A model generated the notes under the pieces. It saw only the letters and a list, made by a program, of their open reading frames with translations, was not told where the DNA came from and made no database searches. 41,515 nucleotides of DNA from Anaerolineae bacterium (GTDB lineage Bacteria; Chloroflexota; Anaerolineae; Aggregatilineales; UBA3940), in the NCBI GenBank assembly GCA_016926255.1, contig JAFGOY010000082.1:1-41515 (forward strand), given 5' to 3'. The translations under genes and the position numbers were made by a program. Of the stretch, positions 1,892 through 39,281 are shown piece after piece; position 1 is the first letter of the stretch; the number at the start of each line of letters is the position of its first letter.

Positions 1892-3052
1892 TCAGTAGGT
1901 GATCTTCTTTTGCAGCGTCACGTCGGCGGATGCCAGCACATCGGCGATCCGCTCCCCCGCGTGGCCGTCGCCGTAAATATGCTCCGACTTGTAGTGCCCG
2001 TTGTCGAGCTGCTTCTCGATTGCCGCCGCAATCTGATTGCGGTCGTAGCCAACGTCGATGATGTTCTTCCCGCGCTGCCGTCCGTTCTGTCGGCTGCCGA
2101 CGTTGACCGCCGGGATGCCCAGGAACTCGCCTTCGCGTACCGCCGAGCTTGAGTTGCCGACCATGCACGCGCAGCGGTTCATCAGCCGGATGAAGGTCTC
2201 GACCGGGAAATTCTTGTAGAAGCGGATGTGCTCGTGCTTGTGCCGCTCGCGGAACTTCCGCATCCCGCGGGAGATGTCCTCCGAACCCGCGTCGACGTTC
2301 GGCCAGAGCATGATCGCCGGGATTTGCAGCACTTCGAGTGCCATCAGCGTCTCGCTGATCTGGTCTTCACCCTGGCCGTATTCGGTCGTTACCGGATGCT
2401 GTGACACCAGCAGGAAGGGCTGATCCAGGTCGATCTCGCCGCCGACGCCTTCGAACTCCAGCCAGGCGCGTTCGGGCAGCGCGTTGTCGTTCTCGACCAC
2501 CTCGGCAACCAGGTCCATGCGCGGACAGCCGACGACGTGGACGGTCGCCGGGTCTTCGCCCATTTTGACGATCCGGTCGGCGGCGTGCTGGTTCGCCGGG
2601 AAATGGATATGCGCCAGCTTGGTGACCGCGTGGCGGATGCTCTCGTCGATGGTGCCGCTGATCTCGCCGCCCATCGTGTGGGCCAGCGGGATGTTCATGT
2701 AGGCGGCGGCGATGGCAGTCGCCATCGTCTCGAAGCGGTCGCCGACGGTGATCACGATGTCGGGTTGCAGGTTGTCGAAGACGGTGGGCAGTTCGAGCAG
2801 CCCCAGCCCGGTCGATTTCGCCATCGTGAGCGGCGTTTCCCCCTCGATGATCATGTGGACGCGGGCGTCGGGTTTGAAGCCATCGGCCTCGATCACCTCG
2901 ACCACCGATCCGAAGCGGTCGAGCAGGGCCGACGCCCCGGCCACGACGATCAGTTCGAGATCGGGGTGATCTTGTATGGCGCGCATGGCGCTCTTGATGC
3001 TGCTATAATTGGCGCGGGAGCCGACCACGACGCCGATTTTTCGCTTGGGCAT
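1892..3052 (-). CDS. neuC: UDP-N-acetylglucosamine 2-epimerase, hydrolysing (NeuC/NnaA type)
   Basis: Converts UDP-GlcNAc (or a related UDP-sugar) to ManNAc plus UDP, the first step of nonulosonic acid synthesis, in the cytoplasm. The 386-residue protein begins KIGVVVGSRANYSSIK (Rossmann start of the GT-B fold). It carries GDRFETMATAIAAAYMNIPL and then MGGEISGTIDESIRHAVTK, the signature of the hydrolysing epimerases of the NeuC/LegG group. The length is usual for the family. I place the start at the ATG at 3052, which follows an AGAGAG ribosome site; an upstream in-frame codon at 3088 adds 12 implausible residues. It is separated from neuB by the plus-strand cassette at 3161-3809, so it probably has its own promoter (TGGTACAAT about 50 bp upstream). 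LegG-type activity on a diamino sugar cannot be excluded. Confidence 0.92.
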   Translation of the reverse strand: MPKRKIGVVVGSRANYSSIKSAMRAIQDHPDLELIVVAGASALLDRFGSVVEVIEADGFKPDARVHMIIEGETPLTMAKSTGLGLLELPTVFDNLQPDIVITVGDRFETMATAIAAAYMNIPLAHTMGGEISGTIDESIRHAVTKLAHIHFPANQHAADRIVKMGEDPATVHVVGCPRMDLVAEVVENDNALPERAWLEFEGVGGEIDLDQPFLLVSQHPVTTEYGQGEDQISETLMALEVLQIPAIMLWPNVDAGSEDISRGMRKFRERHKHEHIRFYKNFPVETFIRLMNRCACMVGNSSSAVREGEFLGIPAVNVGSRQNGRQRGKNIIDVGYDRNQIAAAIEKQLDNGHYKSEHIYGDGHAGERIADVLASADVTLQKKITY

Positions 3053-3160
3053 AATTCTCTCTTGTTTTACTTGGTATCGCGGAGGCAATCTTACTCTATC
3101 CGGGGCGATTGTACCAGTGGGCTTCAGGTAAAGTTAGCTTAACTATATAACCGAGGATGT

Positions 3161-3526
3161 ATGTCAATTCTAATCTTATACACTGATTTGAGAATCTTAC
3201 CATCCATTCTTCAGAAAGCGGAAGTGGAATGGTGCAAAGGCTTATCCGCATTCGACGCAGTTAGGCAATCCTTTGGATCGAAAGTCGCAAATGACATACA
3301 ACAAGACCTGATAAGGAACAATACAGAGCTAATTGTTGCTTGGTATAACAAAGCAAGCGGAGATATTTGTGAAATTGGTGGGGTTGGTACTCTTGATTGG
3401 GTGATAGACGACTATACATTGCTAACAATCACCTATGAAAATGCGAATACCACAGAAGAGCAGATAGCAGAAGCCGACCAATGGACTTTGGAAAATGACA
3501 TCTTAAAATATGAGGGATATCCCTAG
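3161..3526 (+). CDS. Hypothetical protein, first gene of an AT-rich cassette
   Basis: A 121-residue acidic protein that I do not recognise. It has no signal peptide, membrane span or cysteine motif. The ATG follows a GAGG ribosome site, and TATATAA just upstream could be a -10 element. Base composition and codon use are visibly AT-rich (AAT, ATA, AAA) compared with the flanking GC-rich neuC and neuB, and the strand is opposite to theirs, so the cassette looks acquired. Thirteen bases separate its stop from the next gene's start, implying co-transcription. Toxin-immunity or effector-immunity pairing is possible from the layout only. Confidence 0.65.
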   Translation: MSILILYTDLRILPSILQKAEVEWCKGLSAFDAVRQSFGSKVANDIQQDLIRNNTELIVAWYNKASGDICEIGGVGTLDWVIDDYTLLTITYENANTTEEQIAEADQWTLENDILKYEGYP

Positions 3527-3539
3527 ACGACGACTTAAT

Positions 3540-3809
3540 ATGTTTCCAAAAGATGAACAAAACCGGTTAATTGAGCAGAGCAAACAGTTATATCAGTCAT
3601 CAAACGATGTTGAAGTTGTGTTACGATATCTGAGGGATGAAACAAACAATCGGGCTGTGACGTATGTTGTATTGATCGAGGCTATAGGTATGTCACCCCA
3701 AGAAGCAAAAAAGACAATACATTACAGCAAAACATGGGCTGATACGAAACCCCAACGAGAAGAGTTTTCAAAGTCGGTCAACAAGGCGCTAGATGAGATG
3801 AAGAAATAG
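3540..3809 (+). CDS. Small hypothetical protein, second gene of the AT-rich cassette
   Basis: An 89-residue, highly charged, helix-rich protein. Its middle (VTYVVLIEAIGMSPQEAKK, then HYSKTWAD) resembles the small alpha/beta module of ribosomal L7/L12 C-terminal-like domains found in stand-alone small proteins; this is a weak resemblance. I use the ATG at 3540. An in-frame ATG at 3510 would overlap the preceding gene and add ten arginine-rich residues. It ends 12 bp from the convergent neuB stop. Its composition is as AT-rich as that of its partner, and its function is unknown. Confidence 0.6.
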   Translation: MFPKDEQNRLIEQSKQLYQSSNDVEVVLRYLRDETNNRAVTYVVLIEAIGMSPQEAKKTIHYSKTWADTKPQREEFSKSVNKALDEMKK

Positions 3810-3821
3810 GCTTCTGCCCGC

Positions 3822-4838
3822 TCACCCCTCCAGATACGACTCCTTGATCAGCGTATCCTTCGGGATTTGATGCGCCGCCCGCCTGCCGATCACCTTTGCG
3901 TGGTCGCGGGCCGGGATGCCCGTCCCCGGCTTCTTGAACCCGATCATCGACCGCGTGATGATCACCCCGGCGGGGATGTCGATCACCGAGACGATGCTCT
4001 TTTCGAAGATTGCCTTCATCCCGGCATATGGCTCAATATCGTCCTTCTCGACCGGGCTGGCGAGTGTCGTCTCAATCGCCCGGATGCCCGCTACCAGATC
4101 GGCCAGTTCGGGCGGTTCGAGCGAGTGCCTGGCGTCGCTGCCGTACATGTGGCGGCTGAAGGTGAAATGCTTCTCGATCACCGACGCGCCGAGCGTCACC
4201 GCCGCAAAAGCCGCGTAATTCGTCAGCGTGTGGTCGGATAATCCGACCGGCAGCCCGTAGCGCTCGCGCATGTCGAGCATCACGTTCAGCCCGACCTGCT
4301 CATAAGGGCAGGGGTAGGCCGATGTACACTGCATCACCGTGACTCTGTCGTGGTAGCGCAGTAGCGTCTCTACCGCTGCATCGATCTCCGCCCAGGAACT
4401 CATCCCCGACGAGAGGTAAACGTGCTTCCCCGTCTCCCCGACTGCCTCCAGCAGCGGCAGGTTGGTCACCTCGCCGGAGGGAATCTTGTAGTGAATCACG
4501 TCCAATTCCTCAAGCAGTTCGACCGCCTCAATCGAAAACGGCGACGACAGGAAATCGACTCCCTGTGATTCGCAGCGTGCCTTGAGTTCCTGCAACTGCT
4601 TGAAGCTGAACGCCGTCCGCTCGAAGTATTCATAGCGCGGTTCGCCCTTGAAGTAGGGCGGCATCGGCGCATCGGGGAGCGTTTCGGCGTCGGAGATATG
4701 CGTCTGGAATTTGACCACATCCACGCCGCATTCGGCGGCGGTATCGATCAGGTGCAGGGCGTTGCCAAAGCTCCCGTCGTGAACCGATCCCACTTCGGCG
4801 ATGATGGCAACAGGTGTTGGGGCAGGTGTATTATTCAC
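3822..4838 (-). CDS. neuB: N-acetylneuraminate (nonulosonate) synthase
   Basis: Condenses ManNAc (or a related hexosamine) with phosphoenolpyruvate to the nine-carbon acid. The 338-residue protein has an N-terminal TIM barrel (about 1-265) with VVKFQTH, DFLSSPFSIEAVELLEEL, YKIPSGEVTNLPLL, GLSDHT and GASVIEKHFT. A C-terminal antifreeze-like SAF domain (about 275-338) contains KSIV, PAGVIITRSMIGFKKPGTGI and VIGRRA. The length is normal for NeuB. Its ATG overlaps the stop of the upstream sulfotransferase by 8 bp, so the two are translationally coupled. Order on the minus strand is neuA, sulfotransferase, neuB. Whether the product is Neu5Ac or a legionaminic or pseudaminic relative cannot be read from sequence alone. 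Confidence 0.94.
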   Translation of the reverse strand: MNNTPAPTPVAIIAEVGSVHDGSFGNALHLIDTAAECGVDVVKFQTHISDAETLPDAPMPPYFKGEPRYEYFERTAFSFKQLQELKARCESQGVDFLSSPFSIEAVELLEELDVIHYKIPSGEVTNLPLLEAVGETGKHVYLSSGMSSWAEIDAAVETLLRYHDRVTVMQCTSAYPCPYEQVGLNVMLDMRERYGLPVGLSDHTLTNYAAFAAVTLGASVIEKHFTFSRHMYGSDARHSLEPPELADLVAGIRAIETTLASPVEKDDIEPYAGMKAIFEKSIVSVIDIPAGVIITRSMIGFKKPGTGIPARDHAKVIGRRAAHQIPKDTLIKESYLEG

Positions 4839-34929: not shown

Positions 34930-36039
34930 CTATACCTTCTTGCTGAACGTCACCAGCGCCCCGATCACCCCCATTACACCCATTCCCAGCAGCGTCGCCG
35001 CCTCGAATCCGTAGCTGACCATCTCGACACCCTTCAACGCAACGCTCCGCGAGATGATCATGAAATGCGTGCTGGGCATGCAAAACGCCATCACCACCGA
35101 CGAGATCGACGACCTGTCGATGGGCAATATCAGCCCTGTCAGGAAGAATCCGGGGATGAACAGCAGCAGCAGCACGATATTCGATACCGCCCGCTGGCTG
35201 TGGACGAAATTGGTCAGCATCAGGCAGAACGCCATCGTTGCGAACAGGTAATCGGCGATCATCAGCGTGTACGTCCCCACGTTACCCCGGAAGGGCACCC
35301 GGAACCAGAACACGGCCACCGCCAGCGCCAGCAGCCCGCCGACCACCCCCAGCGCCAGATAGACCACCAGCTTGCCCAGCAAATATTCCCGACCCGCTAC
35401 CGGGGTCGTCACCAGCATCTCGAAGGTGCCCGTCTCCCGTTCGCGGGCCACCGTCAGCGCGAGCGCCATCGCGGGCAAAATCAGCACCAGCGCCATCAGT
35501 CCGGGGATCATGCTGACCTGCGAGCGCAGATTCTCATTGAACCATATCCGCACTCGCAGATCGAAGGGCGGAGGGGCGCTTCCCGCGAGACTCGCCGCGT
35601 GCGATTGGGTGCGCCCGTCGACCGAACTGATCACCTGGTAGGCGGTACCCGCGTCGCTCCCATCCACCACCAGGTTGACTTCCGCCTGTTCCCCCGCGCT
35701 CACCCGCGTGCCAAAGTCCGGTGGGATCACCACACCCCCGTCGGCGTCCCCGGCGCGGAATAATTCCGCGAACTCGTCCGCATTGTCGACGTTCGCCACG
35801 ATGGTCAGGTCGCCGTCGGCGGTCAATGCGCGGATATACTCGCGGGCCTGTGGCGATCCATCCCGGTTGTAGATGGCGATATTCGCTTTGTCGACGTCGA
35901 AGGAGAATACGTAAGCTAGCAGCGTCAATAAGACGGCGGGCGAGAGGATCGTCAGGAACAGGAAGCCGGGATCGAACAGGATGTGCTTGAACTCTTTGAC
36001 GATAATCGCGCGGGTGCGGCGAACGGTATTCCGGATCAC
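34930..36039 (-). CDS. ABC-2 type permease (YbhS/YbhR-like), first of a pair
   Basis: A 369-residue membrane subunit. An N-terminal cytoplasmic segment (VKEFKHILFDPGFLFLTILSP) with one span precedes an extracytoplasmic domain (about 50-180) and the C-terminal five-span ABC-2 core. That core carries ALTVARERETGTFEMLVTTPV and FFLTGLILPIDRSS. It has the same layout as the downstream permease, so the two probably form a heterodimer. A 278-bp interval with two palindromic repeats separates the two ATGs. The ATPase is not in the window. Confidence 0.87.
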   Translation of the reverse strand: MIRNTVRRTRAIIVKEFKHILFDPGFLFLTILSPAVLLTLLAYVFSFDVDKANIAIYNRDGSPQAREYIRALTADGDLTIVANVDNADEFAELFRAGDADGGVVIPPDFGTRVSAGEQAEVNLVVDGSDAGTAYQVISSVDGRTQSHAASLAGSAPPPFDLRVRIWFNENLRSQVSMIPGLMALVLILPAMALALTVARERETGTFEMLVTTPVAGREYLLGKLVVYLALGVVGGLLALAVAVFWFRVPFRGNVGTYTLMIADYLFATMAFCLMLTNFVHSQRAVSNIVLLLLFIPGFFLTGLILPIDRSSISSVVMAFCMPSTHFMIISRSVALKGVEMVSYGFEAATLLGMGVMGVIGALVTFSKKV

Positions 36040-36130
36040 AGTCGACGGCCTCTGCTGATAGGTAAAGCCTGCCGCCTATTTTACCCGGATTCGCGATTCC
36101 GGCACTATCAGTTTGTGGGGAGATGTGCTG

Positions 36131-36247
36131 TCAGCAGTTGATATAGCGAATTGGATTCTGTGCGCCCTGTGTGATGTAATGCTCCACAGAACCGCCGATA
36201 AAGTGTTGATACTCCTCAGCGATTTCACCCTCGAACCGCCAGCGGAA
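36131..36247 (-). pseudogene. Possible remnant of a coding sequence
   Basis: A 38-codon minus-strand frame with protein-like content (FEGEIAEEYQHFIGGSVEH, then QNPIRYINC, stop TGA). It begins right after an in-frame TAG and has no start codon at its head. It is in a different frame from the gene ending at 36256. It may be the broken C-terminus of a lost gene; chance is not excluded. Confidence 0.3.
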
Positions 36248-36255
36248 CTAAACAC

Positions 36256-36792
36256 CTAATAAGCAGATAATGCACTGAGAAGTGTTGGGCTAAATGTGGC
36301 TATGATAACATCATAGGACTGATCCTCGATACGATGCACTGTGGCAACACACAAATGCGCTGCCGCCCCTCGGCCCACGGCGGTACCGTCCGCAAATGCA
36401 TTGTCTGCATAGGCTTTTGAAAGAAGCGGACCGTAACCGAAATCTGATGGATTGAAACGGCGGCAGTACGTAACGACTGGTGAAATGAGTGTCTCATTAT
36501 CAGTCCAGCCTGCCTGCGTTATCTGTGCATCCAAATACAAATCTAACTCAGCCTCGGTAGCGAAACTAGAATCTGGGATAGTGTATCGTACTGCTAGAAC
36601 ATCAAAGGTTGGATCGCTACCTATCCGATATTTCCCGGTTGTTTCCTCAGTAACATTGGTAAACCCCAATTCGGGCACGGGTTTGTAATGCGGAGCTGAG
36701 AAAAGATACCAGCGGCAGACAAGACAGGAGACACATAAAACACCAAATATCGACAAGAGAATCCATAGTATCTGTTTTCTGTTCAAGACCAT
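36256..36792 (-). CDS. Membrane-anchored hypothetical protein
   Basis: A 178-residue protein with one N-terminal span (ILWILLSIFGVLCVSCLVC, about 7-25) and an extracytoplasmic remainder. The VSCLVC cysteines could mimic a lipobox, but the segment fits a plain signal anchor better. The rest (TFDVLAVRYTIPDSSFATEAELDLYLDAQ and so on) shows no family I know. The ATG at 36792 follows AGGTGA; an ATG four codons earlier lacks a site. AT-richer than the flanks, in an accessory-looking stretch. Confidence 0.65.
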   Translation of the reverse strand: MVLNRKQILWILLSIFGVLCVSCLVCRWYLFSAPHYKPVPELGFTNVTEETTGKYRIGSDPTFDVLAVRYTIPDSSFATEAELDLYLDAQITQAGWTDNETLISPVVTYCRRFNPSDFGYGPLLSKAYADNAFADGTAVGRGAAAHLCVATVHRIEDQSYDVIIATFSPTLLSALSAY

Positions 36793-36822
36793 TTCACCTA
36801 ACATGCAAATAAGAATGTAGAT

Positions 36823-37536
36823 TCAATCTAGTAAGTACGAGTACGGATCGCATCCGAGGTCGTATTTTAACAAATCAACCTGAAAACTCTTTGCTGAAGT
36901 ACGACTACCTGGATCCTGTATGACCTGTTCGGGGTTACGGGCATCGACCGGGAACCATCCGTGAATCCGGTACACTTCACGGACAATCCCCCGGTAGACA
37001 GTGCAGGCGTATTTTGCTTCATTCCTGCGTGGTCCAACGACCCAGTTCCCGCGTGTGATCTCGTACAGTTCCTCCGCTGACATGCCATAGCGAAACAATC
37101 TGTTGACAATGATCAGGATCGTCGGTTCGTCAATTGTGATTGGCTGCGCGTTGTACTGTGCAATGATGTCGCGGGCGTTCATCCTGCCTCGTTCACCTGA
37201 CTCGTGCCCGGCAACCAGGTTTGTCAGTTCGTCAATCCCCAGTAGATCGATCACCGCCGCCTCGACTTCAAAGGCTTCCTTTTCGGTCAGCCCATGCCGC
37301 AGGATGATGTGCTGGACGTTATAACCCTGCTCCCGAATAGCTCTGATCCGATCCAGCTTGTCGCTGCTCGTTGGGTTGTTCAAGGCGTCGTTGACATGCG
37401 CAAATATTCGGTTGCCAATTCCCTTGCCCACGTAGAATGTTTCCCCGGCGAATGGATCGATGAGTAAGTAGACGTAGGTGCCGATCTGCCCGATGACCGC
37501 TTGCGATGATGGACAAGTGATCCCCTTTTCTTCCAG
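36823..37536 (-). CDS. GIY-YIG (LEM-3-like) nuclease-domain protein, abnormal start
   Basis: The N-terminal domain carries GQIGTYVYLLIDP (GIY half), FYVGKGIGNRIFAHV (YIG half and active-site Arg), AFEVEAAVIDLL (candidate catalytic Glu) and LTNLVAGHE (candidate Asn): a LEM-3-type GIY-YIG fold. About 130 uncharacterised residues follow (NWVVGPRRNEAKYACTVYRG). The only standard in-frame start, a GTG at 37431, is the valine of FYVGKG and would delete half the domain. Upstream the frame is open to 37551 but offers only CTG (37536) or ATC. A well-spaced AAGGGG-TTG start (37516) exists in another frame. So either the start is non-standard or a 1-bp frameshift has broken the gene. Confidence 0.6.
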   Translation of the reverse strand: MEEKGITCPSSQAVIGQIGTYVYLLIDPFAGETFYVGKGIGNRIFAHVNDALNNPTSSDKLDRIRAIREQGYNVQHIILRHGLTEKEAFEVEAAVIDLLGIDELTNLVAGHESGERGRMNARDIIAQYNAQPITIDEPTILIIVNRLFRYGMSAEELYEITRGNWVVGPRRNEAKYACTVYRGIVREVYRIHGWFPVDARNPEQVIQDPGSRTSAKSFQVDLLKYDLGCDPYSYLLD

Positions 37537-37565
37537 TCGTCTATGGAAAGGCTAATTGCACTAAT

Positions 37566-37952
37566 TCAAATCTGTACTTGCCAATATGCTCTCAATTTCT
37601 TGAGTTCATTTAGCCAGAAAATGTCTTCCTCATATTGATCGTGCGAATCAAGCCGACCCAATTCCCGTGCAAGTTCGAAGAAACCATCGCTGGGACGTGT
37701 ACCGTTTTTAGGGAGTCCAATAGCTGAGATCATAGGGCGGCTTTTATCTTCGCTGAGGTCTTTTTGAACTACTGCCCACAAAACCCAACCCAGAGCACCG
37801 CTTAGACCATCTCCAGAGTAATATTGGTCAAGCCCTGCAAGTCGGATGAGATCGCCATACCAGGCAAAGTCTTCCAGGGTTTTGGCCTTCTCTATAAGTG
37901 CCTCATTTACACGCCTGTCATACCACTTTTCGATTTGCTCGTGCTTATCCAC
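37566..37952 (-). CDS. Small conserved-type hypothetical protein
   Basis: A 128-residue protein starting with GTG at 37952 behind a near-perfect GGAAGGAGGT ribosome site. The frame runs open much further upstream (to 38708), but that part overlaps the hydrolase gene on the other strand and is not coding. The sequence RPMISAIGLPKNGTRPSDGF followed by FELARELGRL resembles a widespread family of small accessory proteins of unknown function. AT-richer than its neighbours. Paired inverted repeats lie upstream at 37985-38028. Confidence 0.7.
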   Translation of the reverse strand: MDKHEQIEKWYDRRVNEALIEKAKTLEDFAWYGDLIRLAGLDQYYSGDGLSGALGWVLWAVVQKDLSEDKSRPMISAIGLPKNGTRPSDGFFELARELGRLDSHDQYEEDIFWLNELKKLRAYWQVQI

Positions 37953-37984
37953 GATTGCACCTCCTTCCCAGAGTGCGTATTGTA

Positions 37985-38028
37985 CGGGCACAGCGTGCTG
38001 TGCCCGCCGGGGTCGATCGCTGATCGAC
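37985..38028. promoter_or_regulatory. Two adjacent perfect hairpins upstream of the 128-residue gene
   Basis: CGGGCACAGC/GCTGTGCCCG with a 2-nt centre (37985-38006) and GTCGATC/GATCGAC with loop GCT (38012-38028). They lie 33-76 bp upstream of the GTG at 37952, in a gap between divergent genes. They could be an operator, a REP-like element or a terminator. Confidence 0.5.
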
Positions 38029-38165
38029 GTATCGTCATGAAATGTCGTTCCAATAATAGCACAGCCTTCGCTGTCCCCCATCTGTAACCCGACCGTAACC
38101 CATCTCCCATTGACCCCACCCGGAGAATGGATACAATCGAGACATTGCATACCAGCGAGGGTGAT

Positions 38166-39281
38166 ATGACCAGCCCCCAACCAGCCAACTACACACTTGA
38201 CCACGCCCCGGAGTGGGCCGACGGCTTCACTGCCTGGCTCCCGGAGCGCGTCGATCCCGTCCGGCGGGTGGGCTACACCCTGCGAGATCTCGTCCGCCGG
38301 GGCCTGATCGACGAGGCGGATGCCGCCGAGTTCCACACCGACACCCTCCTCTCCGATTTCGCCTGGCGCTTGCTCTGGGCCGATGAAAACACCCTCCCCG
38401 ATACCGAGTCGATTGGTGAGGCCCTGCGCACTGCCGAGGGAATCGTCGTCTTTTTGCATGGCTGGGATGGCAGTGGCGATATCTGGGAAGACCTTCCCGC
38501 GCTGGTCGTCCAACAGAACCCCCGGCTGGTGGCCCTCGTCCCCGATGTCAACGGGTTTGGCGGCACCCCTTTCAGCACCGATTTTCCCCCTATTGACAAA
38601 TGCGATCCCCCCGCATTGTTCGCCTCTATCGAGCGCTGGCTCGATCTGCTCGGACTTCGTTCGCCCGAAGGCGCGGAGATTGTCCGGCCATTTGTTTTTG
38701 TCGGCCACTCGATGGGGGGCGCAGCGCTCTTTTTCCTTGATGAATCACACTGGCGGCCTGCCGAAGTCGGACGGATAGCTGCTGCCCCGGCTATTCTGCT
38801 CAAAGACCGCCAGCGCCAGAATTTCTACAAGGCGCTCGGCACTGGCATCCAGATCAGCGGGATGAACAACCTGTTCGACCGCATTACCGAGAATGTCCTT
38901 GCCCCGCGTATGATCGAGGCGCTGGCAGGGTGGGGGAGTGAGCGCGTCCTCGCCGAGCATCACCGCATCTACAGGAACACCCACGAGGGTGTGATCGCCC
39001 GTACCTTCGCCGCGATGGGCATGCTCGAAGCCGACCTCTTCCGCGACTCCTGGCCCTTTTTCGATGTCTACCTTGCGCACAAAGACCGTCTCGTCGGGCT
39101 TACCGCGATCATGGAACTGCTTGAGGAGATCAATTTCGACCCGCCGCAGATTCATCTCGCGCTTGGCGACCACTACTTTTTCAGCGTCGGCGAGCGGGAA
39201 GCGCTCCACACCAAAAACCGGGCCATGCTCCTCAACGGCATCCTCTCGATGGTCTGCCGCCTCCTCGACTGCCAGCGCTAA
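38166..39281 (+). CDS. Alpha/beta hydrolase fold protein
   Basis: A 371-residue protein. IVVFLHGWDGSGD (oxyanion-side HG, about 93-105), LVALVPDVNGFGGTPF and the nucleophile elbow VFVGHSMGGAALFF (Ser182) identify the fold. The catalytic His is probably His350 (LALGDHYFF block) or nearby. An N-terminal extension of about 90 residues is rich in Asp and Glu and not typical of simple esterases. The start is the ATG at 38166 after GAGGGTGAT; an ATG at 38127 lacks a site. Cytoplasmic, substrate unknown. Confidence 0.85.
   Translation: MTSPQPANYTLDHAPEWADGFTAWLPERVDPVRRVGYTLRDLVRRGLIDEADAAEFHTDTLLSDFAWRLLWADENTLPDTESIGEALRTAEGIVVFLHGWDGSGDIWEDLPALVVQQNPRLVALVPDVNGFGGTPFSTDFPPIDKCDPPALFASIERWLDLLGLRSPEGAEIVRPFVFVGHSMGGAALFFLDESHWRPAEVGRIAAAPAILLKDRQRQNFYKALGTGIQISGMNNLFDRITENVLAPRMIEALAGWGSERVLAEHHRIYRNTHEGVIARTFAAMGMLEADLFRDSWPFFDVYLAHKDRLVGLTAIMELLEEINFDPPQIHLALGDHYFFSVGEREALHTKNRAMLLNGILSMVCRLLDCQR

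What the first reader, a model, noticed from the sequence alone, without database searches (positions are those of the whole stretch)
36823..37551. GIY-YIG gene with its 5' end out of frame or a non-standard start
The conserved GTYVY and FYVGKG motifs are split by the only standard start codon, so the annotated-style protein would lack half the nuclease domain. An AAGGGG-spaced TTG lies one frame off at 37516. This is either a 1-bp frameshift (real, or a sequencing error), programmed frameshifting, or a CTG/ATC start.
Basis: seen in the sequence. Interest (0 to 1): 0.5.

Follow-up and report, generated by a model that had tools for sequence, protein, structure and literature searches.

The report
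Broken phage-defence nuclease gene, twice damaged
This looks like a recently broken copy of a known bacterial anti-phage DNA-cutting enzyme gene, which has lost its start signal and been split near its end by an inserted gene, so no unusual way of making protein is needed to explain it.

Summary
The GIY-YIG frame (37551-36823, minus strand) has no ATG, GTG or TTG before the GTG at 37431, the V of FYVGKG. A protein begun there would lack all three tyrosines of the nuclease motif. All 38 distinct homologous rows compared have an in-frame standard start, 36 of them ATG, so the missing start is peculiar to this copy. The conserved last 37 residues are not at the end of this frame but at 36244-36134, beyond a ~668-bp insertion carrying a 182-aa ORF (36804-36256). 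All 11 homologues that I ran against the window (of 43 rows) align as two pieces that break there. The gene belongs to the PD-T4-3/CMoRE family, one-gene type IV restriction enzymes against phages with modified cytosines (PADLOC E=4e-49; crystal structures 9u75 and 9u7u). Best reading: a recently inactivated defence gene. Programmed frameshifting is unsupported. An ATC start or a local sequence error cannot be excluded, but neither explains the 3' split. A PD-T4-3-like gene in genome G321 of the same class is also split, by a different insert.

The parts
36913..37521 (-). Main piece of the PD-T4-3/CMoRE-like gene: GIY-YIG nuclease domain and most of the C-terminal domain; no standard start codon at its head
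   Evidence: PADLOC PD-T4-3 E=4e-49 over residues 17-208; Pfam LEM-3_GIY-YIG E=1.8e-19; tblastn of 11 homologues gives first pieces ending at 36913-36925
37429..37431 (-). First standard in-frame start codon (GTG, codon 41); lies downstream of all three motif tyrosines (residues 26, 28, 40 of P0001)
   Evidence: ORF list and translation; alignment to 9u75
37514..37527 (-). AAGGGG, in-frame ATC (37521-37519) and out-of-frame TTG (37516-37514): the region where the lost start is expected
   Evidence: Sequence; an ATG lies 12-21 codons before the YVY motif in most homologous rows
36245..36912 (-). Inserted segment of about 668 bp (edges uncertain by about 12 bp); not a multiple of three
   Evidence: In 3 of 11 homologues (L037, L005, L009) homology stops at 36913 and resumes at 36244 with no homologue residue skipped; in the other 8 one to five residues are skipped
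36256..36804 (-). 182-aa ORF inside the insertion, hydrophobic N-terminus (by eye); family unknown; paralogue (45% identity) at G000:C2:66594-67109
   Evidence: no Pfam, PADLOC or PHROGs match; found only in the own genome among 396 class genomes
36131..36244 (-). Displaced conserved C-terminal end of the nuclease gene (37 codons and TGA stop), in another frame, with an in-frame stop just upstream and no start at its head
   Evidence: tblastn of 11 homologous tails against the whole window, E 7e-14 to 9e-18, 57-73% identity; sequence
36795..36812 (-). First copy of an imperfect 18-nt direct repeat (15 of 18) flanking the inserted ORF; second copy at 36253-36270; may be chance
   Evidence: 6 of 100 resampled sequences hold a pair as good
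37566..37952 (-). Upstream 128-aa ORF (GTG start after GGAGG); its stop is in another frame, so no read-through fusion
   Evidence: no match in 20 other relatives

Best explanation
[quoted passage not shown] Two lesions break it. The start codon is lost or out of frame within the first codons. A ~668-bp segment with a lineage-specific, membrane-protein-like ORF sits between codon 213 and the last 37 codons. Shown here: family, missing start, split, and conserved residues of the core. Inferred: that no active protein is made, that the losses are recent, and that phage defence was the ancestral role in this lineage.
For: All 38 distinct homologous rows have a standard in-frame start; this copy has none. 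All 11 homologues tested (of 43 rows) align to the window as two pieces in different frames, within 37545-36913 and at 36244-36134. The detached tail is about as similar to homologues (57-73%) as the core (55-70%) and has no start at its head. In a leave-one-out count over 13 close rows this copy breaks 9 of 65 conserved columns, the other twelve 0 to 4 of 56-60; seven of the nine are simply the displaced tail, two lie near the N-terminus. Family: PADLOC PD-T4-3, PDB 9u75 and 9u7u. The gene is patchy (3 of 61 relatives; 14 of 396 class genomes), as expected of a dispensable defence gene, and G321 holds another split copy.
Against: The core has no premature stop. Substitutions on the window's branch fall on third codon positions about as often as on that of the intact relative L033 (0.59 against 0.52), so the core evolved under selection until recently, or still does. 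Motif tyrosines, GNR and EVEA are kept. On a wider set of 20 rows the leave-one-out count is not distinctive (3 of 39 columns; others 0-3 of 36-39). The PADLOC match of the intact relatives L033 and L034 also stops near profile position 200, so that feature alone does not show truncation. I have no reads or expression data. The genome is a draft in 82 contigs, so a local error is possible.
Confidence: 0.8

Rival explanations
1. The gene is translated from a non-standard start (ATC at 37521, or CTG at 37536), giving a weakly expressed nuclease whose last 29 residues come from the inserted DNA.
For: ATC lies 15 codons before YVY, within the range of homologous ATGs; the core shows purifying selection; non-standard starts are real in a few bacterial genes (PMC13009471, passages read).
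Against: AAGGGG abuts the ATC with no spacing. All 38 distinct homologous rows have a standard start available. The product would still lack the conserved end of the C-terminal domain.
Confidence: 0.07
2. The 5' lesion is a sequencing or assembly error and the real gene starts normally; only the 3' insertion is genuine.
For: The genome is a draft. A TTG with a fair ribosome-binding site lies one frame off.
Against: The two ABC-2 transporter ORFs nearby match their Pfam model nearly end to end, so there is no sign of frequent indel errors, though this is a small sample. It leaves the split 3' end unexplained.
Confidence: 0.15
3. Programmed +1 frameshifting from the TTG at 37516 joins the two frames.
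For: TTG has AAGGGG at 5-nt spacing.
Against: None of 38 distinct homologous rows needs a shift; I saw no known slippery signal (by eye, recalled motifs).
Confidence: 0.01
4. The 668-bp segment is a spliced or excised element (intron, intein, developmental excision), so the gene is whole at the RNA or protein level.
For: The pieces on either side fit without a missing residue in 3 of 11 homologues. An imperfect 18-nt direct repeat flanks the inserted ORF, of a quality reached in 6 of 100 resampled sequences.
Against: No Rfam match at E<=1 in 35900-38200. The 549-bp ORF leaves about 120 bp, too little for a known group I or II core (recalled). A stop in frame (36823) excludes an intein. The one ORF of 182 aa matches no recombinase or other family. 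No shared word of 6 bp or more, direct or inverted, between the two edge stretches compared. The 18-nt repeat's first copy lies about 100 bp inside the 5' edge.
Confidence: 0.02

Closest known systems
[quoted passage not shown] PADLOC PDLC04031; PDB 9u75, 9u8d, 9u7u, 9u7z)
   Same: GIYxY-YIG tyrosines, GNR, EVEA and about 190 collinear residues; 9 of 9 intact relatives scanned match the profile, 7 of them nearly end to end
   Different: No usable start; last 37 residues displaced by an insertion; lacks the run of acidic residues between the two helices (NPTSSDK against ADDDDLLSNK)
LEM-3/ANKLE1 GIY-YIG domain (Pfam PF22945)
   Same: Nuclease domain matches, E=1.8e-19, residues 33-127
   Different: No ankyrin or LEM domain matched; different C-terminal part
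Phage-borne GIY-YIG genes, some annotated as homing nucleases (e.g. Pseudomonas phage OBP)
   Same: 45.9% identity over residues 16-209
   Different: Phage genes; here a contig of a bacterial draft genome

Membership tests
PD-T4-3/CMoRE | Match to the PD-T4-3 profile over the nuclease and sensing domains | tested here: met
   E=4e-49, residues 17-208 to profile 8-199 of 256
PD-T4-3/CMoRE | GIYxY-YIG motif (third tyrosine) | tested here: met
   TYVY...FYVGKG; residues 26, 28, 40 (motif from PMC12923530)
PD-T4-3/CMoRE | Complete C-terminal sensing domain in one reading frame | tested here: not met
   Last 37 residues lie at 36244-36134 in another frame. Alone they did not reach the PADLOC profile
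PD-T4-3/CMoRE | Translatable gene with a start codon | tested here: not met
   No standard in-frame start before codon 41
PD-T4-3/CMoRE | Negatively charged autoinhibitory loop (in most members, per PMC12923530; so not strictly defining) | tested here: not met
   Acidic run absent in the alignment with 9u75; stretch also short in the close relatives aligned
PD-T4-3/CMoRE | Cuts 5hmC/5ghmC DNA and protects against T-even phages | not testable with these tools
   Needs a bench assay
Gene with programmed frameshift | Conserved need for a shift in homologues | tested here: not met
   38 of 38 distinct rows start in frame
Self-splicing intron | Covariance-model match | tested here: not met
   No Rfam match at E<=1 in 35900-38200

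The most novel reading that the evidence does not exclude
The gene still makes a nuclease at low level from a non-standard ATC start, with its conserved sensing-domain end replaced by a 29-residue tail from the inserted gene's leader: a defence enzyme with changed target sensing under tight translational restraint.
Probability: 0.05. Interest if true: 0.45.

Novelty: new member of a known kind. Interest (0 to 1): 0.2.

Why it matters
It shows that an apparent start-codon oddity can be one of two scars in a decaying defence gene, and that annotation from the GTG at 37431 would report a nuclease without its motif tyrosines. With the split copy in G321 it hints that PD-T4-3-like genes may be lost repeatedly by insertion in this class, which could be counted.

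Tried and rejected
A search for introns and other RNA families gave nothing. Repeats at the insertion edges: two 4-base matches, no shared word of 6 bp or more in the edge stretches compared, and an imperfect 18-nt direct repeat around the inserted ORF that 6 of 100 resampled sequences equal, so inconclusive. The 37-residue tail alone gave no PADLOC match and only a chance-level PHROGs match (E 0.18); its identity rests on tblastn with 11 homologues. A register comparison of DNA around the expected start did not decide which lesion removed it. The pattern scan of IMG/VR found two relatives at 37% identity, alike over their first 60 compared residues. No PADLOC match at E<=1e-5 among eight other window ORFs. 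The TGA counted in the G190 copy lies upstream of its ATG, so that copy is intact. Structure prediction was not run because solved structures exist. Only one genome per species is held, so no second strain could be compared. A paper on start-codon efficiency was not held. A listing on decay of defence systems was seen, no paper of it read.

Full report
Observation. The minus-strand frame 37551-36823 codes for 242 residues after a TAG, and its first ATG, GTG or TTG is the GTG at 37431, codon 41. That codon is the V of FYVGKG. The AAGGGG abuts the in-frame ATC at 37521 without spacing.

What the gene is. The frame matches Pfam's LEM-3-like GIY-YIG domain (E=1.8e-19). It matches much better PADLOC's PD-T4-3 (E=4e-49, residues 17-208) and two solved proteins named GIY-YIG domain-containing protein (9u75 E=4.2e-34; 9u7u E=4.8e-33). 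Of PMC12923530 I read the abstract, the first two of three parts of the Results, the Discussion and found passages. It characterises PD-T4-3, renamed CMoRE, and lists 9U75, 9U8D, 9U7U and 9U7Z as its structures. It describes a one-gene type IV restriction enzyme: an N-terminal GIY-YIG domain cuts DNA and a C-terminal domain senses 5-hydroxymethylcytosine or its glucosylated form. Passages of PMC12409345 report that PD-T4-3 restricts phages of the Tevenvirinae in E. coli. In PMC12923530, mutation of key active-site residues, the three motif tyrosines among them, impaired defence and abolished cutting in vitro. In the window these tyrosines are residues 26, 28 and 40 (by the alignment), all upstream of the GTG at codon 41. 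A protein begun at the GTG is therefore expected to be inactive.

Start codon. From 48 loci besides the window's own, a motif filter kept 43 homologous rows; five loci (L032, L042, L043, L044, L049) gave no row, being partial or not fitting the filter. Five of the 43 rows repeat another row over the first 60 residues. All 38 distinct rows have a standard start in frame upstream of the YVY motif, 36 of them an ATG; the other two have TTG (L014) and GTG (L028). The window has none. The nearest relative is L033, from a genome of the same family (69% identity); it has an ATG at the expected place. A lost or displaced start in this one copy is thus the simple reading. The data do not tell whether the codon itself changed or the frame shifted just after an original start.

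Second lesion. The alignment showed that the window protein follows its relatives to about residue 213 and then leaves them, missing a conserved end. In a leave-one-out count over 13 close rows it departs from 9 of 65 otherwise invariant columns; the other twelve depart from 0 to 4 of 56-60. Seven of the nine are the missing end itself, two lie near the N-terminus. Over a wider set of 20 rows it departs from 3 of 39, the others from 0 to 3 of 36-39, so the wider count does not set it apart. tblastn of homologous tails found the missing end at 36244-36134, first in a 1.2-kb region and then against the whole window, where it was the best hit for 11 of 11 tails (E 7e-14 to 9e-18; next best E 0.018 or worse). 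These 11 were chosen from the 43 rows as close full-length ones, duplicates left out. Full-length, 11 of 11 align in two pieces. In L037, L005 and L009 the first piece ends at 36913 and the second begins at 36244 with no residue skipped; in the other eight, one to five homologue residues are skipped. About 668 bp, not a multiple of three, lies between. The tail is preceded by an in-frame stop and its only standard start codon is the GTG at 36187, in its middle, so it is not a gene of its own. The PADLOC match of the window stops at profile position 199 of 256, but that of the intact L033 and L034 stops at 200 and 203 too, so the evidence for the split is the tblastn, not the profile.

The insertion. 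It holds a 182-aa ORF (36804-36256) with a hydrophobic N-terminus (seen by eye). It has no Pfam, PADLOC or PHROGs match. Among 396 class genomes only the own genome holds it, in two places: here and at G000:C2:66594-67109, 45% identical. The second copy lies in an ORF of its own (205 aa). This argues that the inserted ORF belongs to this genome and is no contaminant. I found no intron match and no shared word of 6 bp or more between the edge stretches. An imperfect 18-nt direct repeat flanks the ORF (36795-36812 and 36253-36270, 15 of 18 alike); 6 of 100 resampled sequences hold a pair as good, so it is only a hint of how the ORF moved.

Age and selection. The tail is 57-73% identical to homologues and the core 55-70%; the core has no stop. 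On the window's branch 59% of inferred changes in residues 16-213 fall on third positions, against 52% on L033's branch; in residues 16-40 the values are 49% and 61%, from about ten and seven changes. The gene was therefore kept by selection for most of its history. Either the damage is recent, or some function remains. This is the main evidence against a simple dead gene, and I leave room for it.

Distribution. Matches occur in 3 of 61 relatives and 14 of 396 class genomes, the own genome and G026 counted in both. Eight of the 14 cover about 180 or more residues of the query in one piece; the rest are partial, weak or split. 33 phage records and 189 plasmid records hold relatives. This patchiness fits a mobile, dispensable defence gene. 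One of the 14, G321, holds a copy split by about 1.8 kb with a 548-aa ORF in the opposite direction that has no Pfam match at E<=1.

Mechanism and verdict. The ancestral protein most likely cut phage DNA with modified cytosines (inferred from the family). This copy most likely makes no active enzyme (inferred). Programmed frameshifting is rejected for want of any conserved need. A non-standard start remains possible; passages of PMC13009471 show such starts in a few genes of S. aureus, there with extended Shine-Dalgarno motifs. A local sequence error at the 5' end remains possible, since this is a draft genome in 82 contigs and I have no reads. A library search for PD-T4-3 with pseudogene listed one paper, which I did not read. 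The finding is a damaged member of a known kind and of modest interest.

Noticed in passing
L060 (G321:C4:721500-726000), 3256-2993 and 1199-726: Another PD-T4-3-like gene of the same class is split by about 1.8 kb carrying a 548-aa ORF of unknown family in the opposite direction.
   Followed up: partly
window 36256-36804 and G000:C2:66594-67109 (L051, L058): A pair of lineage-specific paralogues found in no other of 396 class genomes; one of them sits inside the nuclease gene.
   Followed up: partly
window 36253-36270 and 36795-36812: An imperfect 18-nt direct repeat (15 of 18) flanks the inserted ORF; 6 of 100 resamples do as well.
   Followed up: partly
L015 (Clostridiaceae MAG), 3001-3921: The homologue is longer and seems to carry a second copy of the C-terminal sensing domain (alignment, by eye).
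   Followed up: no
phage records listed (e.g. H1, H3, H16): Several large phages (Pseudomonas OBP, Serratia and Klebsiella phages) carry relatives of this defence family, annotated as homing nuclease, endonuclease or hypothetical protein.
   Followed up: no
window 37566-37952: A 128-aa ORF directly upstream with a good ribosome-binding site, low G+C (0.46), and no match in 20 other relatives, Pfam, PADLOC or PHROGs.
   Followed up: partly
close relatives L033, L037-L040, L004-L006 (alignment): The stretch that holds the acidic autoinhibitory loop in the crystallised enzymes is short and lacks the run of aspartates, so self-protection may work otherwise here.
   Followed up: no
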